A stretch of 40,670 bases of DNA from the NCBI GenBank assembly GCA_024226555.1, contig JAAELO010000550.1:1-40670 (forward strand). The letters run 5' to 3'. Below, in pieces: positions 4,975 to 38,144 of this stretch. The position numbers and the translations under genes are program-made. The notes under the pieces are model-generated. The model saw nothing but the letters and a program-made list of their open reading frames with translations, did not search any database and had not been told where the DNA came from. Within the stretch, counting starts at the first letter, position 1. Each line of letters opens with the position of its first letter. The DNA comes from Desulfobacterales bacterium (GTDB lineage Bacteria > Desulfobacterota > Desulfobacteria > Desulfobacterales > JAAELO01).

Positions 4975-5031
4975 TAGAATATCATATGCTTTAAAAACCA
5001 AAAAGCCAAATGTGCATATATGAAAACTAAA

Positions 5032-5161
5032 GGGAACTTCTAACAATTAGAATTTTTGATGAAAAACAAGGCATAACAAAAAATAACGGGTTGATTTTAC
5101 TACAGTTTTATTTTTGTTATAACGATGTGTTTCGCAAAAAGATCAGTTATTAGGGATTCCC
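5032..5161 (-). mobile_element. MITE-like element, copy 3 (full length)
   Basis: An intact 130-bp copy with ends GGGAACTTCTAACAATT and AGTTATTAGGGATTCCC. The flanking 4-mers are TAAA and TTAA, a target duplication with one mismatch. Its central sequence is almost identical to the fragments at the two ends of the window. Confidence 0.85.
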
Positions 5162-11020: not shown

Positions 11021-11719
11021 ATGCCTAAAATATCTTTCTTCAAAGAAGTAACAAAGGAAGTAAAAACATCTGAGAATGCTCTTTTAAATTTTTCAGAACT
11101 ATTTCAGCTGCGCACATATCAGTCAAAAGAACATTTTGTTAATATTGAGGAAAAAAATAGCAGAGTTGGTTTTTTGGCCGAAGGGGGTAATGAGAAGTTA
11201 TATTATAGATTTAGATGGAAACGAAGCAAACCTCAGATTTGTTCTTCCTTTAAATTTTGTTAAAGGAAGTTTTGCCAGTAATGACTCAAGCCCGGTTAAC
11301 ATACAATGTATTGAGAAATGTTCACTATATGTTGCTGACTGGGCTAATGTTATGAAGTTTGCATCTTCAAACCCTGAATTTCAGAACTTTTTTAATTTAC
11401 TGCTATCAAAAGGTTATTCAAAAACAATACAACTTCTTGCAAATCTTATAAGACTCAATGCCAAAGACAGATATTTGTTATTTATCAAAGAATTCCCTGA
11501 CTTAATAGAGGGAACCTCTAATAACTGATCTTTTTGCGAAATACTGCTTTTTCAAAAAAACAACTGTAGCAAAATCAACCCATTGTTTTTTCTCAGCCTT
11601 GTATTTCATCAAAAATTCTAATTATTAGAAATTCCCTAGACAAGATTCCCCACTATCTTATTGCAAACCATCTGGGAATAACTTCTGTTCAACTAAGCAG
11701 AATCAGAAAAAACCTGTAA
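11021..11719 (+). pseudogene. Crp/Fnr-family regulator, broken by a frameshift and a MITE insertion
   Basis: Two pieces of one gene are visible. The first frame from ATG 11021 (MPKISFFKEV) runs into FLAEGG. The protein then continues in the next frame as VMRSYIIDLDGNEANLRF, a cyclic-nucleotide-binding-domain block typical of Bacteroidota-style Crp proteins. Removing one G from the run of five at 11183-11187 restores FLAEGVMRSYIID. Near the end, element copy 4 (11510-11636, with TAGA on both sides) interrupts the frame. Deleting it and one TAGA yields LIDKIPHYLIANHLG followed by ITSVQLSRIRKNL and TAA at 11717-11719, the expected helix-turn-helix. As it stands, the element supplies a false ending (EGTSNN stop). 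The gene starts 8 bases after the parC stop. DNA binding is surely lost. Confidence 0.88.
11510..11636 (+). mobile_element. MITE-like element, copy 4, inside Crp/Fnr gene
   Basis: A 127-bp intact copy: GGGAACCTCTAATAACTG at the left, ATTATTAGAAATTCCC at the right, flanked by TAGA at 11506-11509 and 11637-11640. Because the interrupted gene can be read through when the element and one TAGA are removed, this copy fixes the element's exact ends and its 4-bp target duplication. Confidence 0.93.
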
Positions 11720-12063: not shown

Positions 12064-12082
12064 AGTTAACATATAATTAACT
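12064..12082. promoter_or_regulatory. Inverted repeat at -35 of the RiPP precursor gene
   Basis: AGTTAA-N7-TTAACT is a perfect 6-bp inverted repeat whose right arm touches the first T of the TTGACA -35 box. A protein bound here would occlude the promoter. Confidence 0.4.
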
Positions 12083-12111
12083 TGACATTGCTTATTTAGG
12101 AATTGTAAATT
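12082..12111 (+). promoter_or_regulatory. Promoter of RiPP precursor gene
   Basis: A consensus -35 TTGACA (12082-12087) and a -10 TAAATT (12106-12111) are separated by 18 bases, with a leader of about 60 bases before the ATG at 12179. This is the best sigma-70-type promoter in the window. Confidence 0.6.
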
Positions 12112-12178
12112 CAGCACAGTATTGCATGCAGTATTATATTGGTTGGAAATTGTGTCTTTAACAAAAGGAGAAAGAATT

Positions 12179-12367
12179 ATGAAAAAAAAGTTATCTCTAC
12201 AATTTATTGAAGATGGAATATCTTCAGAATCTGAAACATTATCTAATTTGAAAATAGATAAACTTTCGGATGAAGATCTGAAAAGTATTGAAGGTGGTGG
12301 ATGTATGGGTTCTTGGTGCCGTAGTAAAACATGCTCGTCAAGGCAGTGTCTGGTTTACTCTGGATAG
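12179..12367 (+). CDS. RiPP precursor peptide, double-glycine leader and C-x4 periodic core
   Basis: This 62-residue peptide starts at an ATG seven bases after AGGAGAAAG; an in-frame ATG 57 bases earlier has no comparable site. Residues 1-40 are a leader of the C39-peptidase type ending LSDEDLKSIEGG, matching the classic LSxxELxxIxGG pattern. The predicted 22-residue core (41-62) has Cys at 42, 47, 52 and 57, that is C-x4-C-x4-C-x4-C, with W46 and Y60 as the only aromatic residues and two Arg. The adjacent radical SAM/SPASM gene makes a Cys-linked or carbon-crosslinked product likely (sactipeptide, ranthipeptide or cyclophane class), with removal of the leader during export by the downstream ABC protein. 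The bioactivity is unknown. I do not recognise the core as any described family. Confidence 0.85.
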   Translation: MKKKLSLQFIEDGISSESETLSNLKIDKLSDEDLKSIEGGGCMGSWCRSKTCSSRQCLVYSG

Positions 12368-12387
12368 TAAAGTAAGATAAAGTGATA

Positions 12388-12430
12388 AGTGGGGTGCAGT
12401 GAAAAAAAGACTGCATTCCACTATTTTTAT
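12388..12430 (+). terminator. Intrinsic terminator / attenuator after precursor gene
   Basis: A 13-bp stem pairs AGTGGGGTGCAGT (12388-12400) with ACTGCATTCCACT (12410-12422), two of the pairs being G-U, around a 9-base loop, and is followed by ATTTTTATT. It lies 20 bases after the precursor stop and before the maturase gene, so it probably keeps precursor mRNA in large excess over the enzyme and exporter mRNA through partial read-through. Confidence 0.8.
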
Positions 12431-12477
12431 TAATCTGATAAAAAATTACATAATAAAGCCGATTTAAGTTTGACCAG

Positions 12478-12500
12478 CAAATAACATGTCAGGTTATTTG
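12478..12500. promoter_or_regulatory. Perfect inverted repeat upstream of maturase gene
   Basis: CAAATAAC-N7-GTTATTTG has 8-bp perfect arms, 48 bases before the maturase ATG, and overlaps a weak TTGACC-led promoter candidate starting at 12470. No T-run follows, so an operator or an mRNA-stabilising hairpin is more likely than a terminator. Confidence 0.4.
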
Positions 12501-12548
12501 TGATGGAAATTTAAATTAGCAATATTTCTAAGATAGGATGATTTTGAG

Positions 12549-13868
12549 ATGATTTGGTCAAAGTATAACTATTTATTTGTATCAAAAAAATTTGGTAATT
12601 TGCTTTTCAATAGTCTTTCCAATAGCTTTGCTGAACTGGATGATGAGACATACCATGAGTTATTAGAGATTAAAAAGAACACGGAAACATATGATTTTGA
12701 TACTGTTCCCGAGTTATACAGTCAACTGCTTAAGAAAAAAATTATTATACAGGAAAAAGATGATGACTATAATTATTTAAAATATGAGACATCAATACAA
12801 AGGTTCAACAACTCATTTCTTGCATTAACAATTGCTCCTACTCGTCATTGTAATTTTAGTTGTGAATATTGTTATGAACAAGACAGACCTTCAATTTATA
12901 TGACGGATAAAACAGAGGAAGCATTGATCGATTTTATCAAAGCACATACAGGAATAAATCGTCTTTTTATTGATTGGTATGGAGGTGAACCGTTACTTGC
13001 TTTTGATCGAATCAAAAGTATTACTAATAAGATATTAGAGTTAGATATTGAATATCAAGCTTCAATTATTACGAATGCCTATCTACTTGATAAAACGATA
13101 ATTGAGCAACTACCAGATCTTAAAATCAATGAAATTCAAATCACGCTTGATGGTTTGGAAGAAACTCATAATAAACGACGCCCTCATATTGAAAACAATG
13201 ATTCATATAAAACAATACTACATAATATTGATGATCTGGTTAAATTCGATAAAGAAGGTAAAATACTGAAAAACATCCGAATGAATGTGGATGCAACAAA
13301 CAGTCACGAATATAAAGAATTGTACAAGCTCCTGAATGAACAGCATGGACAGGGGAAATTAATGATGCATCCTGGATTTGTAGACGATATTACCGGTTGC
13401 AGGTCCTCAGGTGGTTGTCTGTTTGATAAAAATCAGGTCGCTGATTTCATAACTGATCAATATGAAAATCATAAAATTAAAGATCTTGGCTTTTATCCTC
13501 CAGGGCATCAGGGCGAGTGTATGGCTCGAAGTAACAATAGTTATCTGGTCGGGCCAGAAGGGGACTTATATAAATGCTGGAATGATATTGGGAATGACAA
13601 ATATTCAATCGGAAACATTCATGCACTGGATAAAATAAAAAATTCAATGTTAAGAAAGTATATGATTGGAGCAGATCCTCTTGATGATCCACGTTGTAAC
13701 AAATGTTTTTATTTTCCGATGTGTTCAGGTGGTTGTCCGTGGAAAAGGTTGAGAAATAAATATGACGGATTGGAATTTGACCTTTGTACATATTTTAAAG
13801 TGAACCTTGACACGTTTTTGGAGATTCATTATGAAATAAAAAAAGATAAAGTGAATGTAGGTTTATAA
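12549..13868 (+). CDS. Radical SAM/SPASM peptide maturase
   Basis: This 439-residue enzyme should modify the precursor encoded just upstream. Residues 1-90 look like the winged-helix leader-binding (RRE-like) start common in such maturases (FNSLSNSFAELDDETYHELL). The radical SAM core has C101-x3-C105-x2-C108 in the motif CNFSCEYCYE, and GGEP at 145-148 binds SAM. The C-terminal SPASM region carries C324, C343, C383, C386, C392, C396 and C413, enough for two auxiliary 4Fe-4S clusters. C284 and C290 are extra. Family knowledge says that these enzymes make thioether or C-C crosslinks in ribosomal peptides; which bond is made here cannot be read. It is co-directional with the precursor, about 180 bases behind it, past a terminator hairpin. 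Confidence 0.93.
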   Translation: MIWSKYNYLFVSKKFGNLLFNSLSNSFAELDDETYHELLEIKKNTETYDFDTVPELYSQLLKKKIIIQEKDDDYNYLKYETSIQRFNNSFLALTIAPTRHCNFSCEYCYEQDRPSIYMTDKTEEALIDFIKAHTGINRLFIDWYGGEPLLAFDRIKSITNKILELDIEYQASIITNAYLLDKTIIEQLPDLKINEIQITLDGLEETHNKRRPHIENNDSYKTILHNIDDLVKFDKEGKILKNIRMNVDATNSHEYKELYKLLNEQHGQGKLMMHPGFVDDITGCRSSGGCLFDKNQVADFITDQYENHKIKDLGFYPPGHQGECMARSNNSYLVGPEGDLYKCWNDIGNDKYSIGNIHALDKIKNSMLRKYMIGADPLDDPRCNKCFYFPMCSGGCPWKRLRNKYDGLEFDLCTYFKVNLDTFLEIHYEIKKDKVNVGL

Positions 13869-13975
13869 AAGGGTTACCTCTTTTTTGATCAATTATAAAA
13901 TAAGAGCATAAATGCCTGTGATTGAACGTTTATGATAAATAATAATATAAAGACAGATATGTATTTTGAGTTAAT

Positions 13976-16168
13976 ATGAAATTTCCATTTTATCAACAAT
14001 TAGATTCAAAGGATTGCGGGCCAACATGTTTAAGGATGATTGCCAAATTTTATGGTAGAGAATACTCTCTTCAAAGCCTGCGTGATCTGAGCGGAATTTC
14101 GAGAAGTGGTATATCTTTATTGGGGCTCAGCGGTGCTGCCGAATCACTGGGTATGCGAACAATGGGTGTAAAAATCTCCTTCGATCAGCTTCAAAAGGAT
14201 GTTCCACTACCTTGCATTGTCCATTGGAGTCAAAATCATTTTGTTGTAATTTATAAAGTTACAAAAAAAAAAGTATTTGTTGCTGATCCCGATTACGGGC
14301 ACATCGTTTATACTAAGAAAGATTTTTTAAACCAGTGGATCAGCACGCGACATAATGATGAGGAGTTAGGCATTTGCCTTTTGATTGAGCCCACTCCTGT
14401 TTTTCATGAACAGGATAATAAAAGAGATGACGAAAAATTTAATTACCGTTTTGCCCTTTCCTATTTAAAACCATATAAAAAATTTATTTTTCAACTTTTT
14501 ATAGGCTTAATAACGGCAAGTCTGATTCAATTAATATTCCCTTTTCTGACACAATCAATTGTTGATATAGGAATTGATCATCAGGATCTTGGTTTTATCT
14601 ATTTAATACTAATTGCTCAGCTAATGCTATTTATTAGTAGGATGAGTATCGATTTTATTCGTGGCTGGCTCCTTTTGCATATTAGTACACGGATTAACAT
14701 ATCTATTATTTCTGATTTTTTAATCAAATTAATGAAACTTCCAATTGGATTTTTTGATACAAAAATTATTGGAGATATTATCCAGAGGATAGATGATCAT
14801 CAGAGAATTGAGTCGTTTCTGACATCATCAACTCTGAATATTTTATTTTCAATGATTAATCTGGTTGTTTTTGGAATTGTTCTCGCCCTGTTTAATCTGA
14901 CAATTTTCAGTGTTTTTTTAGCAGGAAGTATATTATATATTTTTTGGCTCTCCTTGTTTGTAAGGAAGCGGCGTGTTTATGATTACAAACGATTTGAGCA
15001 ACTATCCTTAAGTCAGAGCAATGTTATTCAGTTAATATCCGGGATACAGGAAATTAAGCTCAACAATTGTGAGAAACAAAAGCGCTGGGAATGGGAAAAT
15101 ATCCAGGCAAAACTCTTCAAGGTGTCAGTCAAAAATCTATCATTACACCAATACCAACAGATTGGAGGATTTTCGATTAATGAAACAAAAAATATTTTAA
15201 TTTCCTTCCTTGCAGTAAAAGCAGTTATCGCAGGCGATATGACATTGGGGACAATGCTGGCAATACAATATATTCTTGGTCAGTTAAATAGCCCAATTGA
15301 GCAAATGATTGAATTTATCCATTCGATTCAGGATGCCAAAATCAGCATGGAACGATTGTGGGAAATTCATAAGAAAGAGGATGAAGAAACAAACCGCAAT
15401 ACCAAAATTACATCTCTTCCTGAAAAAAGAGATCTGCATATATCAGGTCTTTCATTTCAATACTCAGGAGCTCACTCACAATACTCATTGTTGAATATTA
15501 ATTTTCAAATACCCTCTGGAAAAGTAACTGCCGTTGTTGGTAAAAGTGGTAGTGGAAAAACAACGCTTCTCAGGTTACTACTTGGGTTTTATCCCCCAAG
15601 TAGTGGTAATATCTATGTGGGAAAAAAGAATTTAACAGATATCAGCGAGCATTTTTGGCGTAGTAAGTGTGGAGTTGTTATGCAGGACGGCTTTATTTTT
15701 TCAGATACCATTGCTGAGAATATTACAGTGAGTAGTGAAATCATTGATAATGAAAAGTTATTAAATGCTGCTAAAGTTGCAAATATACATGAGTATATAG
15801 AATCCCTTCCTCTGGGATATAATACAAAAATTGGCGAGGAAGGGCCTGGGCTCAGTCAAGGGCAGAAACAACGAATCCTTATTGCTCGTGCTGTATACAA
15901 AAATCCTGAATTTCTATTCTTCGATGAAGCTACAAATGCTCTTGATGCAGAAAATGAACAGATCATTATGAGAAATCTTGAAAATTTTTTCAGGGGAAAA
16001 ACGGTAGTAGTAGTTGCACATCGACTGAGTACAGTAAAAAATGCTGATCAGATTATTGTTCTGGATAAAGGAAGTATTATTGAAACAGGTCATCATCACG
16101 AATTGACACAAATTAAAGGAAAATATTATCAATTGGTAAAAAATCAATTGGAACTGGTAGCTTCATGA
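13976..16168 (+). CDS. Peptidase-containing ABC transporter (C39 type) for RiPP export
   Basis: This 730-residue protein both cleaves the double-glycine leader and exports the core. Residues 1-125 are the C39 papain-like peptidase, with catalytic C14 (SKDCGPTCLRM), H88 (HWSQNHFVV) and D104 (VADPDYG). A transmembrane domain of about six helices spans about 155-440. The nucleotide-binding domain has Walker A GKSGSGKTT near residue 522, signature LSQGQKQR near 626 and Walker B FLFFDEAT near 650. The wording of the peptidase region resembles Bacteroidota exporters. It lies 107 bases after the maturase and is followed after 13 bases by the HlyD-like partner. Confidence 0.95.
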   Translation: MKFPFYQQLDSKDCGPTCLRMIAKFYGREYSLQSLRDLSGISRSGISLLGLSGAAESLGMRTMGVKISFDQLQKDVPLPCIVHWSQNHFVVIYKVTKKKVFVADPDYGHIVYTKKDFLNQWISTRHNDEELGICLLIEPTPVFHEQDNKRDDEKFNYRFALSYLKPYKKFIFQLFIGLITASLIQLIFPFLTQSIVDIGIDHQDLGFIYLILIAQLMLFISRMSIDFIRGWLLLHISTRINISIISDFLIKLMKLPIGFFDTKIIGDIIQRIDDHQRIESFLTSSTLNILFSMINLVVFGIVLALFNLTIFSVFLAGSILYIFWLSLFVRKRRVYDYKRFEQLSLSQSNVIQLISGIQEIKLNNCEKQKRWEWENIQAKLFKVSVKNLSLHQYQQIGGFSINETKNILISFLAVKAVIAGDMTLGTMLAIQYILGQLNSPIEQMIEFIHSIQDAKISMERLWEIHKKEDEETNRNTKITSLPEKRDLHISGLSFQYSGAHSQYSLLNINFQIPSGKVTAVVGKSGSGKTTLLRLLLGFYPPSSGNIYVGKKNLTDISEHFWRSKCGVVMQDGFIFSDTIAENITVSSEIIDNEKLLNAAKVANIHEYIESLPLGYNTKIGEEGPGLSQGQKQRILIARAVYKNPEFLFFDEATNALDAENEQIIMRNLENFFRGKTVVVVAHRLSTVKNADQIIVLDKGSIIETGHHHELTQIKGKYYQLVKNQLELVAS

Positions 16169-16181
16169 GGGGTGTGCTGTA

Positions 16182-17345
16182 GTGCCTGTGAATATTGAAT
16201 TATATAGTGAAGAATGTCAGGAAATAATTGGGCAGATACCCCATTGGATTATCCGAACCGGAATGATTGTTATTCTACTGACTCTTCTGATGATGCTTGC
16301 TGGTAGTTGGTTTTTTCGCTTTCCTGAAGTAGTTGAATCTTCTGTGACCATATCCCCTGAGCACTTGCCCTTATCGGTTGTTGCCAAATCCAATGGAAAA
16401 ATAGCACAATCAATTGTATCTAACCACCAGAAGGTTAAGTGTGGTGATTTTTTAGCCATTTTTGAGAGCAAAGCTGTATGGGCAGATGTTAAACAGCTCA
16501 AAACAAATCTGGAATATTTCAAATCCTGTTTCCCTGAAATTAAGAGATGCCGTTTAATGCCTGTTAGTGAAGCAAAATTAGGTGTGTTGCAAATGGACTT
16601 TTCAAATTTTTACACCAACTATTCAAATTATCAAAATTTCTTACAGTCTGACTATTTTAAAAAAAAAATAGTATTAATTAAAAATCAGATCGACTTATAC
16701 CAGTTATCAGTTAATCGTTTAACACTTCAAAAAGAGAAGGAATTAATAAAACATAAAAATACAAAAAGTCCGATTGACCTTTCACAAATCGAACTTGAAA
16801 TCAATAATATTACAATCCAAATTGCTAAACTCAAAGAATCCGTATTGGATCTTACAAATCAATTCGAAAGCCAGAATAATAAACTTCAACTATCATTTCA
16901 CAGGTCATTAAAAAATTTAAATGTTCAGATTAAGTTGTGGGAAAACGACCATGTTTTAAAAGCACCAATAAGTGGAACTGTATTTTTTTCACAGGATTTA
17001 AACAAAAAAAAATATATAAAACAGGGTTCCTGTTTGATGAAAGTAAAACCACATGATCCGGGAAATATTACCGGGCGATTACAGTTATCTCAAGAAGTTC
17101 TTAGTAAAGTTAACGTAGGGCAAGCAGTTAAAATAAAGTTTAAAAATTATCCATGCATAGTTAAAGGAACAATAAAAAAAATTTCAAATGCTGTATTGAA
17201 TGGCTATTATAATGTTGAAGTAAATCTTCCAAAAAAAATAACAACTCACTGTGATAATATAGATTTAACTGTGACAAAACAGGGGGTGGCAGAGATACAG
17301 ACCGAAAATATCCGACTGTTTGAACAACTCTTTTTTTCCTTTTAA
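16182..17345 (+). CDS. HlyD-family membrane fusion protein of the RiPP exporter
   Basis: This is the periplasmic adaptor that should link the ABC exporter to an outer-membrane channel. The 387 residues begin with a GTG, 13 bases after the exporter stop, with GAGG at the preceding stop codon. An N-terminal cytoplasmic tail of about 24 residues is followed by one membrane helix (IIRTGMIVILLTLLMMLAGSWFF). Then come a lipoyl-like half (VVAKSNGKIAQSIV), a coiled-coil hairpin of about residues 125-235 and the returning lipoyl/barrel part (LKAPISGTVFF). The form is that of Bacteroidota peptide-export adaptors. No TolC-like gene is present, so an outer-membrane channel must come from elsewhere. Element copy 5 lies about 90 bases downstream. 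Confidence 0.88.
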   Translation: MPVNIELYSEECQEIIGQIPHWIIRTGMIVILLTLLMMLAGSWFFRFPEVVESSVTISPEHLPLSVVAKSNGKIAQSIVSNHQKVKCGDFLAIFESKAVWADVKQLKTNLEYFKSCFPEIKRCRLMPVSEAKLGVLQMDFSNFYTNYSNYQNFLQSDYFKKKIVLIKNQIDLYQLSVNRLTLQKEKELIKHKNTKSPIDLSQIELEINNITIQIAKLKESVLDLTNQFESQNNKLQLSFHRSLKNLNVQIKLWENDHVLKAPISGTVFFSQDLNKKKYIKQGSCLMKVKPHDPGNITGRLQLSQEVLSKVNVGQAVKIKFKNYPCIVKGTIKKISNAVLNGYYNVEVNLPKKITTHCDNIDLTVTKQGVAEIQTENIRLFEQLFFSF

Positions 17346-17432: not shown

Positions 17433-17541
17433 ATGGTCGATGGAATACAAGGCTGAGAAAAAAACAATGGGTTGATTTTACAAAATTTGTTTTTTTTTGG
17501 AAAACAGTATTTCGCAAAAAGATCAGTCATTAGAGGTTCCC
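17433..17541 (-). mobile_element. MITE-like element, copy 5 (left end degenerate)
   Basis: Typical element interior (GATGGAATACAAGGC and on) and a good right end, AGTCATTAGAGGTTCCC, followed by TAAA. The left terminal sequence is not recognisable. With copy 4 it brackets the RiPP cluster. Confidence 0.75.
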
Positions 17542-17658
17542 TAAAAATAATATATCTAAATTATTGGAATGCACCCATTTCTTTCAAAATTATAGCGAAT
17601 ATTAAAGAAGTATTCCCTGTCTTCTTGCGGCGGGGAGTGTAGAATATTAAAGGTATAA
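17542..17658. other. Short gene-free gap downstream of copy 5
   Basis: Together with copy 5 this makes up the roughly 310-base space between the RiPP cluster and the next gene. It lies between the convergent 3' ends of the HlyD-like gene and the minus-strand peptidase-like gene. I see no gene or strong terminator hairpin. Confidence 0.4.
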
Positions 17659-18534: not shown

Positions 18535-18623
18535 TTAAACAAAAAAATCTAATGTAAAAATCGGCTCGGTATTTTTTCATCAGTCTTGTATTTCAATCAA
18601 AATTCTAATTATTAGAGGTTCCC
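18535..18623 (+). mobile_element. MITE-like element, copy 6 (truncated)
   Basis: The right two thirds of an element, ending TAATTATTAGAGGTTCCC; the left terminal part is missing. Its end overlaps the last codons of the minus-strand lipoprotein gene at 18612. Confidence 0.75.
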
Positions 18624-19157
18624 TTCACTAATTTTTTCAAATCTTTCTTCCGAAAAATCGGCAGCAAAAACTGGAATAAGAGATTTAACTAAAACCAGAC
18701 CAAACATCTGGGATTCATATTTAATATTACCTTTGATATCAAGACCAAGGAGTTCCCTTTGAAATGATGGGCCAACTGTTTTATCATCAGGACGTCTTTT
18801 CATCTTAAAAGCATAGAGATGAATTTTTCCGTTTTTTATCTCGAAGTCCTGTCCCTCAAGATACTCCTTTTGATATAGAACTGAACTGTTTTTGATTGCT
18901 TTTACAATTAGTTTTTCATCATCTGAGACTATCTCAATTAACTCAATCTCATCATGGATCGGTGCAGTATTCAGTGTCCACCTCCAAAGAAGTTCAGACA
19001 GATGAAAACCCCTTGGGATTCCTTTGTTTTTGTATAAACCATCTATCTCGTAAACAGTTTCAACAGAAGCAAAGTCTAATGTCTTCCCTGGTTTTGAAAA
19101 AGATATGCAACTACTAAGAGATATTGTTATTATGAGTATTAAAAAAAAATTTTTCAT
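18612..19157 (-). CDS. Lipoprotein of unknown function with element-derived C-terminus
   Basis: The 181-residue product has a lipoprotein signal with lipobox LSSC (Cys17) and so is probably anchored in the outer or inner membrane facing the periplasm. The mature part has a recognisable start (SKPGKTLDFASVETVYEIDGLYKNKGIPRG) but belongs to no family I know. The last four residues, EGNL, and the TAA stop come from the terminal repeat of element copy 6 (GGGAACCTCTAA), so the original C-terminus has probably been altered. A remnant of another element lies just upstream of its start. Confidence 0.65.
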   Translation of the reverse strand: MKNFFLILIITISLSSCISFSKPGKTLDFASVETVYEIDGLYKNKGIPRGFHLSELLWRWTLNTAPIHDEIELIEIVSDDEKLIVKAIKNSSVLYQKEYLEGQDFEIKNGKIHLYAFKMKRRPDDKTVGPSFQRELLGLDIKGNIKYESQMFGLVLVKSLIPVFAADFSEERFEKISEGNL

Positions 19158-22783: not shown

Positions 22784-22912
22784 GGGAATCTCTAATAATT
22801 AGAGTTTTGGATGAAATACAAGGCATTTCCAAAAATAACGAGCCGATTTTATTACAGTTATTTTTGGAAATAACAAAGTATTTCGCCAAAAGAACAGCTA
22901 TTAGAGATTCCC
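22784..22912 (-). mobile_element. MITE-like element, copy 9 (full length, splits an operon)
   Basis: A 129-bp intact copy with TATT at 22780-22783 and 22913-22916. On the minus strand it is inserted between the TAG stop of the MaoC-like gene and the AGAGGT ribosome-binding site of the YCII-like gene. The upstream stop codon survives because the duplication ends in TA (minus strand) and the element begins with G. Confidence 0.92.
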
Positions 22913-36211: not shown

Positions 36212-36331
36212 GGTAACCTCTAACGACTGCTCTTTTTGCGAAATACTTCGTTACCAAAAAAACTGTTGTAAAATCGGTTCGTTATTTTTGTTCATGCATT
36301 TCATCAAAAATTTTAATTATTAGAGGTTCCC
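36212..36331 (+). mobile_element. MITE-like element, copy 14 (full length)
   Basis: A 120-bp copy with ends GGTAACCTCTAACGACTG and AATTATTAGAGGTTCCC, flanked by TTTA at 36208-36211 and 36332-36335. Confidence 0.9.
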
Positions 36332-36489
36332 TTTAGTTATTTCTTAAAAACAAAAGTTTTTTGAATAGCAAAAAAAGGATTGGAACTCTGTGATATTGTA
36401 GATAAAAAGAGCTTGACAATAAACACGATTAAAGGGTATTTTATAGCTGAATGCTATTAAAACCTAAATTTACAAAGTTTCTAAATCAA
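36332..36489. other. Gene-free spacer between two element copies
   Basis: About 158 bases without coding potential. It is part of the 675-base interval between the MBL-fold gene and the receiver gene, most of which consists of three element copies. Confidence 0.4.
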
Positions 36490-36638
36490 GGGAACTTATA
36501 ATAATTAGAATTTCTGATGAAATACAAGACAAAAAAACAATGGGTTGATTCGTTTATAAAAAGCTTTAGTTTGTAAAGTGTACAGTTTTATTTTTGTTAT
36601 ATCTGTATTTCGCAAAAAGATCAGTTATTAGCGACTCC
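36490..36638 (-). mobile_element. MITE-like element, copy 15 (long subfamily)
   Basis: A 149-bp copy beginning GGGAACTTATAATAATT and ending AGTTATTAGCGACTCC, containing the AAAAGCTTTAG module. Its right end is degraded and no target duplication is clear. Confidence 0.8.
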
Positions 36639-37273: not shown

Positions 37274-37400
37274 CTAATCTCTAATAATTAGAATTTTTGA
37301 TGAAAAATAGCGTTTATAAAAAGCTTTAATTTTATAAAGTGTACAGTTTTATTTTTGTTATATCTGTGTTTCGTAAAAAGATCAGTTATTAGAGTTTTCC
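37274..37400 (-). mobile_element. MITE-like element, copy 16 (long subfamily)
   Basis: About 127 bp: CTAATCTCTAATAATTAG at the left, AGTTATTAGAGTTTTCC at the right, with the AAAAGCTTTAATTTTATAAA module in the middle. It ends 24 bases before the PTH2-like gene. Confidence 0.75.
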
Positions 37401-37423: not shown

Positions 37424-37774
37424 ATGAAAATGTATATTCTAATCAAAGACTCAATTCCTGAATGTTTTGCTATTCTGGCTGCTGCCCATTCGTCATTAGC
37501 TGCATATCTTAAATTCGAGGAATCAAATGAAATAAAGGAATGGCTCTCCGGCCCTTTCTACAAGGTCATTTGTAAAGTAAACGAAAAGGAGTTCAAAAAA
37601 GCAAAAGAGTTTGATGATAATGTTATCTTAACTGAATCAGCTCTTGAGAATCAGGAGGTCGCAATAGCTTTTAAACCAAGATCTGATTGGCCCAAACCTT
37701 TCAAATTTTATAAGGGAATCTCTAATAACTGTTCTTTTGGCAAAATACTTTGTTATTTCCAAAAAAAACTGTAA
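37424..37774 (+). CDS. PTH2-like (peptidyl-tRNA hydrolase II fold) protein with element-derived C-terminus
   Basis: The first 97 residues fit a small PTH2-like family: MYILIKDSIPECFAILAAAHSSLAAYLKF, IKEWLSGPFYKVICKV, EFKKAKEFDD and ALENQEVAIAFKPRSDWPKPFKF. Such proteins recycle peptidyl-tRNA or are catalytically different homologues; activity here is unproven. The last 19-20 residues (GISNNCSFGKILCYFQKKL) and the stop codon are encoded by element copy 17, inserted after FKFYK. Without it the frame would read FKFYKLYKG and run into another element end, matching the usual short ending of this family as I recall it. The fold is probably intact. Confidence 0.72.
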   Translation: MKMYILIKDSIPECFAILAAAHSSLAAYLKFEESNEIKEWLSGPFYKVICKVNEKEFKKAKEFDDNVILTESALENQEVAIAFKPRSDWPKPFKFYKGISNNCSFGKILCYFQKKL

Positions 37775-37842
37775 TAAAATCGGCTCGTTATTTTTTGAAA
37801 TGGCTTGTATTTTATCCAAAATTCTAATTATTAGAGGTTCCC
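37714..37842 (+). mobile_element. MITE-like element, copy 17 (full length)
   Basis: A 129-bp intact copy with ATAA at 37710-37713 and 37843-37846. It overlaps the 3' end of the PTH2-like gene and is nearly identical to copy 18 only about 170 bases away, so one or both moved recently. Confidence 0.93.
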
Positions 37843-38012: not shown

Positions 38013-38139
38013 GGGAATCTAATAACTGTTCTTTTGGCAAAATACTTTGTTATTTCCAAAAAAAACTGTAATAAAATCGGCTCGTTATTTTTTGAAATGG
38101 CTTGTATTTTATCCAAAATTCTAATTATTAGAGATTCCC
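38013..38139 (+). mobile_element. MITE-like element, copy 18 (full length)
   Basis: A 127-bp copy with TTAA at 38009-38012 and 38140-38143. It differs from copy 17 by a 2-base loss near the left end and one change in the right end. Confidence 0.93.
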
Positions 38140-38144
38140 TTAAA

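What the first reader, a model, noticed from the sequence alone, without database searches (positions are those of the whole stretch)
12064..17345. RiPP cluster with a C-x4-C-x4-C-x4-C core peptide
Seen: a precursor with a double-glycine leader (LSDEDLKSIEGG) and a 22-residue core with Cys exactly every five residues (42, 47, 52, 57), then a radical SAM/SPASM enzyme, a C39-peptidase ABC exporter and an HlyD adaptor. Known: radical SAM/SPASM maturases next to Cys-rich precursors make thioether (sacti-, ranthi-) or cyclophane links. Inferred: a four-fold, evenly spaced crosslinked peptide is made and secreted. The strict five-residue period matches none of the patterns I know (six-Cys SCIFF, C-x3-D freyrasin type, sactipeptides with N-terminal Cys clusters), so it may be a new class.
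Basis: partly seen in the sequence, partly recalled or inferred. Interest (0 to 1): 0.88.

Follow-up and report, generated by a model that had tools for sequence, protein, structure and literature searches.

The report
Bacteroidota-type RiPP cluster, evenly spaced cysteines
A bacterium carries a small, probably borrowed gene cluster for a secreted peptide whose four cysteines stand exactly five residues apart; a five-residue cysteine step beside a radical-SAM enzyme is already a named pattern, so this looks like a short, unusual relative of a known kind and not a new class.

Summary
In detail: a 62-aa precursor (12179-12367; leader ...LSDEDLKSIEGG; Cys 42, 47, 52, 57), a radical SAM/SPASM maturase, a C39-peptidase ABC exporter and an HlyD adaptor. 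The claim that the five-residue period matches nothing known does not hold: NCBIfam has 'Cys-every-fifth RiPP peptide CefA' (NF038108) and 'maturase CefB' (NF038107). Tannerella forsythia, in the same small maturase group, has a CefA (11 Cys, all gaps five, 89.5 bits, cut-off 30) directly upstream of its maturase. The window's pair is not a formal member: its peptide is not reported by NF038108 and its enzyme scores 199 against 600. Its core also lacks the Asp/Asn/Gln found at Cys+3 in all 11 T. forsythia repeats. Neighbouring maturases have precursors with other Cys spacings (mostly seven; a single Cys), so the period does not define the group. Maturase tree and exporter place the cassette with Bacteroidota, as a horizontal acquisition (inferred). 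Best reading: a short CefA-like peptide without Asp/Glu/Asn in its core, probably thioether-crosslinked, cut after GG and exported. No chemistry is shown. New variant of a known kind; moderate interest.

The parts
12166..12170 (+). ribosome-binding site AGGAG of the precursor
   Evidence: read from the sequence
12179..12298 (+). leader peptide, 40 aa, ending in GG
   Evidence: TIGR04149 20.3 bits (cut-off 25) and TIGR01847 14.1 (cut-off 15.7), both below cut-off
12299..12367 (+). core peptide GCMGSWCRSKTCSSRQCLVYSG and stop; Cys 42, 47, 52, 57; no Asp, Glu or Asn
12549..13868 (+). radical SAM/SPASM maturase, 439 aa; C101-x3-C105-x2-C108 and seven SPASM Cys (C324-x13-G338-x4-C343, C383-x2-C386-x5-C392-x3-C396, C413)
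   Evidence: residue numbers from the alignment with T. forsythia L044; the form of the SPASM motif is recalled; tree
13976..16168 (+). C39-peptidase ABC exporter (PCAT), 730 aa
   Evidence: PF03412, PF00664, PF00005 over cut-off; 57% identical to T. forsythia L044, 60% to G446:C35
16182..17345 (+). HlyD-type membrane-fusion adaptor, 387 aa, GTG start
   Evidence: PF13437 over cut-off; TIGR01843 52.4 bits, cut-off 208.65
11510..11636 (+). 127-bp MITE-like repeat with duplication TAGA (11506-11509 and 11637-11640), upstream; one of many copies, not part of the pathway
17439..17542 (-). truncated copy of the same repeat, inverted, downstream; not part of the pathway
11021..11719 (+). remnant of a Crp/Fnr-like regulator gene (family name recalled, no family search run), frameshifted and split by the repeat at 11510-11636; no link with the cluster shown

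Best explanation
A single-precursor RiPP cassette acquired from the Bacteroidota. The SPASM maturase acts on the four evenly spaced Cys of a 22-residue core, most likely making Cys-derived thioether crosslinks to nearby residues (candidates: Trp46, Thr51, Gln56, Ser61 at Cys+4, or Ser45, Lys50, Arg55, Tyr60 at Cys+3). The C39 domain of the exporter then cuts after GG (residues 39-40) and the ABC/HlyD pair secretes the peptide. Shown: gene order, domains, motifs, and the placement of enzyme and exporter among relatives. Inferred: crosslinking and its sites, cleavage, export, the acquisition and its direction, and any antagonistic or signalling role. It works like, but is not a formal member of, the CefA (Cys-every-fifth) kind.
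For: Radical SAM and SPASM domains over cut-off and their Cys present. The three best NCBIfam models are maturases of Cys-rich peptides: TIGR04334 Clo7bot 245.4 bits, TIGR04463 205.9, NF038107 CefB 199.0. Only PDB sequence match at E<=1e-8: 5wgg/5why. Maturase tree of 55 rows: the window lies in a 32-row set (100/100) whose other 31 rows come from T. forsythia, a Parabacteroides plasmid or genomes drawn from T. forsythia's phylum, and within it in a 5-row set (92/71, not starred) with T. forsythia L125, L128, L044 and Parabacteroides L069; the own genome's other maturase (L039) groups elsewhere with own-phylum rows. L125 has a CefA with 11 Cys all five apart directly upstream. Holding the window with the G005 maturases of its own order is rejected, p-AU 1.8e-16 (group chosen after the tree was seen). 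Exporter: 0 of 344 other own-phylum genomes match at E<=1e-190 (the 3 best candidates scored per genome), against 57-60% identity in T. forsythia and 58-61% in Emticicia and Parabacteroides plasmids.
Against: In the 25 best of 75 NCBIfam matches, every maturase model that names a peptide class is below its cut-off. The precursor is not reported by NF038108 with the limit at E=10 (HMMER filters may hide weak scores). One of the rows drawn from T. forsythia's phylum, L132, falls outside the 32-row set, and the window-L125 pairing has support of only 22/6. No close homologue of the precursor was found: only itself in the own genome and 6 plasmid records at E 0.9 or worse. The core has no Asp/Glu/Asn, so PapB- or NxxC-type acceptors are missing. 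One neighbouring precursor has a single Cys. The structure model was too poor to use (mean pLDDT 46).
Confidence: 0.6

Rival explanations
1. The maturase makes another bond (for example a Trp- or Tyr-based cyclophane) and the Cys form disulfides or bind metal.
For: The core holds Trp46 and Tyr60; models of cyclophane-forming enzymes also match (YhhB 62.6 bits, AmcB 50.1).
Against: Those scores are far under the 245, 206 and 199 bits of Clo7bot, TIGR04463 and CefB and under their own cut-offs (445, 425). Several related maturases stand beside Cys-rich precursors, though not all (L044, one Cys).
Confidence: 0.18
2. The exact five-residue period is coincidence in an ordinary Cys-bearing GG-leader RiPP; the enzyme group does not require a period.
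For: Equal spacing at any period arises in 0.9% of shuffles. Near maturases have precursors with other spacings: L069 7,7,10,9,7,7; L044 one Cys; Nif11-leader peptides L150 and L152 8,7,8 in the core. No Asx at Cys+3, unlike T. forsythia CefA.
Against: A maturase in the same 5-row set has a CefA with all ten gaps five.
Confidence: 0.2
3. An inactive, decaying cluster.
For: The adjacent Crp/Fnr-like gene is frameshifted and split by a repeat.
Against: Precursor, maturase, exporter and adaptor have open frames and the maturase keeps its Cys motifs. The repeat is abundant, so an insertion nearby is unremarkable. The regulator may be unrelated.
Confidence: 0.08

Closest known systems
CefA / CefB, Cys-every-fifth RiPP system (NCBIfam NF038108 / NF038107)
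   Same: Cys every five residues in a peptide beside a SPASM maturase; the T. forsythia CefA also has a GG-ended leader and a maturase 36-37% identical to the window's
   Different: Four Cys instead of 11 (T. forsythia) or 28 (Methylomagnum, gaps of 5 or 10); no Ala/Gly-rich repeats; no Asp/Asn/Gln at Cys+3 (11 of 11 in T. forsythia; 17 of 28 Asp/Asn/Glu in Methylomagnum); both model tests failed
Clo7bot peptides and maturase (TIGR04334)
   Same: Best NCBIfam model for the maturase, 245.4 bits; Cys-rich precursors with a recurrent step
   Different: Cut-off is 600 bits; in the seven annotated P. bifermentans precursors 22 of 37 Cys gaps are four; they begin MKFI and have no GG leader
TIGR04463 maturase with CefA, Methylomagnum plasmid
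   Same: Maturase relative (26.7% identity) beside an annotated CefA
   Different: 679-aa precursor, a second radical SAM gene, and no C39 exporter among the 7 features listed (that gene table may be incomplete)
Ranthipeptides: CteA/CteB, PapA/PapB (freyrasin), NxxcA
   Same: Radical SAM enzymes making Cys thioethers; 5wgg (CteB) is the nearest solved sequence
   Different: PapB links Cys to Asp/Glu (PMC9413430, abstract and passages) and NxxcA links Cys to Asn (PMC8326336, passages); the core has none of these. Four Cys, not six as in SCIFF
Bacteroidales GG-leader radical SAM RiPPs (TIGR04149; PMC10352776, passages only)
   Same: GG leader, radical SAM enzyme, C39 exporter, membrane-fusion protein
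   Different: TIGR04149 20.3 bits against 25; the host appears (inferred) to lie outside the Bacteroidota

Membership tests
CefA (NF038108) | Match to the model over 30 bits | tested here: not met
   Not reported for the window peptide at E<=10; T. forsythia peptide 89.5 bits
CefA (NF038108) | Cys at every fifth residue | tested here: met
   Cys 42, 47, 52, 57
CefB (NF038107) | Match over 600 bits | tested here: not met
   199.0 bits. The maturase beside T. forsythia's CefA also fails (162.7), so CefA occurs without a formal CefB
Clo7bot maturase (TIGR04334) | Match over 600 bits | tested here: not met
   245.4 bits
TIGR04463 maturase | Match over 525 bits | tested here: not met
   205.9 bits
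SCIFF (TIGR03974 maturase) | Six Cys in forty-five residues; maturase over 425 bits | tested here: not met
   Four Cys; 101 bits
PapB-type ranthipeptide (NF047865) | Cys-Xn-Asp/Glu pairs; maturase over 340 bits | tested here: not met
   No Asp or Glu in the core; 115.6 bits
Ranthipeptide or sactipeptide by chemistry | Thioether from Cys S to a non-alpha or an alpha carbon | not testable with these tools
   Needs MS/MS and NMR
Radical SAM/SPASM peptide maturase | CX3CX2C plus SPASM Cys motif | tested here: met
   PF04055 53.5/29.5; TIGR04085 63.3/27; motif residues
C39-peptidase (PCAT) exporter | C39 peptidase fused to an ABC exporter | tested here: met
   PF03412, PF00664, PF00005 over cut-off; 4ry2 second among the PDB sequence matches shown
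TIGR04149 GG_sam_targ_CFB precursor | Match over 25 bits | tested here: not met
   20.3 bits

The most novel reading that the evidence does not exclude
A distinct crosslink type: a ladder of sequential thioether rings set by four Cys five residues apart in a 22-residue peptide, made without the carboxylate or amide acceptors used by PapB and NxxC enzymes and present at most CefA Cys+3 sites, so the enzyme must use a different acceptor (Cys+3 Ser/Lys/Arg/Tyr or Cys+4 Trp/Thr/Gln/Ser).
Probability: 0.2. Interest if true: 0.65.

Novelty: new variant of a known kind. Interest (0 to 1): 0.36.

Why it matters
The Cys-every-fifth family has a name in NCBIfam, but I found no paper on it in the open-licence PMC library: 0 papers for 'Cys-every-fifth', none naming NF038107 or NF038108, 0 for 'radical SAM' with 'every fifth' and 'cysteine', 0 for 'Clo7bot'. 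A 22-residue, four-Cys substrate with its own compact enzyme would be a much easier system for finding what this enzyme group does than an 11- or 28-Cys CefA. Its lack of acidic residues and Asn would also separate Cys-Asx crosslinking from other chemistry.

Tried and rejected
Composite-transposon idea: the inverted repeats flanking the cluster looked like mobile-element ends. The genome holds at least 40 copies, the window's two included, on the window's contig and 33 others (only 40 of 1130 candidates were scored). Many copies have GGGAAYC-type ends and several show 4-bp A/T-rich duplications (read by eye from the 25 copies printed). 16 matching pieces, 11 of them at least 76 columns long, lie in this window alone. 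So the flanking pair is background. The repeat's spread over contigs argues that the window's contig belongs to this genome.

Own phylum: CefB model, 18 of 395 genomes at E<=1e-50 (own included), 0 over the cut-off; controls 3 of 14, 0 over it. A script over those 19 loci showed no period-five precursor except the window's own, but read the + strand only, with an ATG/GG/Cys filter and about 1.5 kb of flank; the strict pattern count on both strands also has no hit in L045-L065 (L051, the window's own, left out). Window maturase: 3 of 395 at E<=1e-40, own included; 7 of 58 of the closer draw at E<=1e-20, own included.

CefA model in T. forsythia's phylum: 42 of 390 genomes at E<=0.01, 13 over the cut-off; controls 2 of 14, 1 over it. 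T. forsythia stands out at 90 bits; the next single stretch has 36.4, and another stretch of that genome reaches 49.1 with its neighbours in the frame. Of the 20 loci fetched (about 1.5 kb of flank) only T. forsythia's has a maturase match, so I read the others as low-complexity frames (inference).

Viral contigs: 3 weak relatives, not pursued. Phage records: 5 matches, two fetched. CefA in plasmids and phages by tblastn: none (low-complexity filter on). Structure: one AlphaFold job on a two-row alignment, mean pLDDT 46, not used. Naming the organism: a first 16S attempt used wrong coordinates and searched a tyrS stretch; the corrected one gave at most 76.8% identity among the 25 records listed of 543, while its tally has 34 records at 80-95%, presumably over shorter stretches; not named.

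Papers other than those cited: search listings only; PMC9062424 passages, where 'every fifth' does not occur.
Full report
What is there. The window holds a four-gene cassette on the + strand: a 62-residue precursor (12179-12367), a radical SAM/SPASM enzyme (12549-13868), a C39-peptidase ABC exporter (13976-16168) and an HlyD-type adaptor (16182-17345). The enzyme keeps C101-x3-C105-x2-C108 and the seven SPASM cysteines (residue numbers; the form of the SPASM motif is recalled).

Chance. In 200,000 shuffles of the core, exact five-residue spacing appears in 0.08% and equal spacing of any period in 0.9%. In six-frame translation of 882,435 bases of the other loci held at that time (five loci of the window itself left out) the bare four-Cys pattern occurs 36 times: 27 hits in two CefA genes (8 of them counted twice because L122 and L125 overlap) and 9 elsewhere, at 6 distinct places. 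The pattern alone is weak evidence; its place in a GG-leader peptide next to a maturase is what counts.

Already named. NCBIfam scans of the enzyme gave Clo7bot maturase TIGR04334 (245.4 bits, cut-off 600), TIGR04463 (205.9, cut-off 525) and NF038107 'Cys-every-fifth radical SAM/SPASM peptide maturase CefB' (199.0, cut-off 600) (25 of 75 matches shown). A Methylomagnum plasmid carries an annotated 'Cys-every-fifth RiPP peptide CefA' beside a TIGR04463 maturase. Searching T. forsythia's phylum with the window maturase gave 25 of 395 genomes at E<=1e-45, T. forsythia included (the 4 best candidates scored per genome). T. forsythia contig C19 (L125) encodes a 99-residue peptide with a GG-ended leader and 11 Cys all five residues apart, directly upstream of a maturase 36-37% identical to the window's. 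That peptide scores 89.5 bits to NF038108 (cut-off 30). The five-residue period next to a SPASM enzyme is therefore a known pattern, also in this enzyme's own neighbourhood. I found no paper on it in the open library (the 2 papers hold only TIGR04149; listings only).

How it differs. The window precursor is not reported by NF038108, and its enzyme is below the cut-off of every maturase model among the 25 shown that names a peptide class. In T. forsythia CefA the residue at Cys+3 is Asp, Asn or Gln in 11 of 11 repeats; in Methylomagnum it is Asp, Asn or Glu in 17 of 28, where the gaps are 5 or 10. In the window it is Ser, Lys, Arg, Tyr, and the whole core has no Asp, Glu or Asn. PapB makes Cys-Asp/Glu thioethers (PMC9413430, abstract and passages) and NxxcA links Cys to Asn (PMC8326336, passages), so neither acceptor type is available here. 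CteB links Cys to Thr (PMC8326336 and PMC11002830, passages), and Thr51 stands at Cys47+4; that is a lead only.

The enzyme group does not fix the period. The maturase tree (55 rows, 53 different) places the window in a 32-row set at 100/100 with rows from T. forsythia, a Parabacteroides plasmid and genomes drawn from T. forsythia's phylum, and in a 5-row set at 92/71 (not starred) with T. forsythia L125, L128, L044 and P. distasonis L069. One row of the same draw, L132, falls outside. The precursors of the 5-row set differ: L125 11 Cys at five; L069 a GG-leader peptide with gaps 7,7,10,9,7,7; L044 a GG peptide with one Cys; L128 three ORFs passed my filter, none convincing. In the 27-row sister set, 14 of 25 loci show Nif11-like GG peptides by eye, with varied Cys; one, L150, was checked and passes TIGR03798. 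The direct pairing of the window with L125 has support of only 22/6.

Origin. Forcing the window maturase together with the G005 rows of its own order is rejected (p-AU 1.8e-16; the group was chosen after the tree was seen). The own genome's other maturase, L039, groups with own-phylum rows instead. In the own phylum, 0 of 344 other genomes have an exporter match at E<=1e-190 (3 candidates scored per genome), while the best T. forsythia exporters are 57-60% identical and the best plasmid hits, Emticicia and Parabacteroides, are at 58-61%. I infer that the cassette came from the Bacteroidota. That the host is not itself in that phylum is also inferred: in the rows shown, the two phylum draws share no genome handle.

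Surroundings. A 127-bp repeat with duplication TAGA (11510-11636) splits a Crp/Fnr-like gene upstream, which is also frameshifted; a truncated inverted copy lies downstream (17439-17542). The repeat has at least 40 copies in the genome and 16 matching pieces in this window, so its flanking the cluster is background.

Mechanism and verdict. Most likely the maturase links each Cys to a nearby residue through a thioether, the C39 domain cuts after GG, and the ABC/HlyD pair exports the product. Domains, motifs and order are shown; modification, cleavage, export and function are inferred. It works like a short CefA, and it is not a formal member of CefA/CefB. New variant of a known kind.

Noticed in passing
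window 11510-11636; also pieces at 1-76, 5031-5160, 17439-17540, 18542-18624, 22784-22911, 36215-36332, 36486-36631, 37276-37397, 37715-37842, 38018-38140: One short MITE-like repeat family (GGGAAYC-type ends; 4-bp duplications in several copies) is very dense in this genome: 40 copies listed at the scoring limit and 16 pieces in this window.
   Followed up: partly
window 11021-11719: A Crp/Fnr-like regulator gene is broken by a frameshift and by a repeat insertion that cuts off its C-terminal helix-turn-helix-like part.
   Followed up: partly
L072 (Enterococcus phage IME_EF3 partial record, unverified) 1038-1178 and 1265-2467: A record labelled phage holds a maturase relative (33% identity) just after a 46-aa ORF with Cys gaps 5,7,5,7; it may be bacterial DNA or a phage-borne RiPP pair.
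   Followed up: no
L069 (P. distasonis plasmid NZ_OY725789.1) 71-1349: A 3.3-kb plasmid carries a maturase relative and a GG-leader peptide with seven Cys, four of its six gaps being seven.
   Followed up: no
L150 5867-6148 and L152 8259-8540: Nif11-like GG peptides with near-identical cores TCWAFSGSTCFSVGNNCWVVNPNFCSMVS / TCWAFSGTTCFSVGNNCWVVNPNYCSMVG (core Cys gaps 8,7,8) near maturases of the sister group.
   Followed up: no
G005:C194 1471-6825 (L032, L038, L040, L041): Four consecutive SPASM maturase genes in a genome of the window's own order, with a short Cys-rich ORF next to one of them, MEWIVEPEDETQRLEGAPGCCCMCSVTCSNGGGCTYYTPFCPSFG in L040.
   Followed up: no
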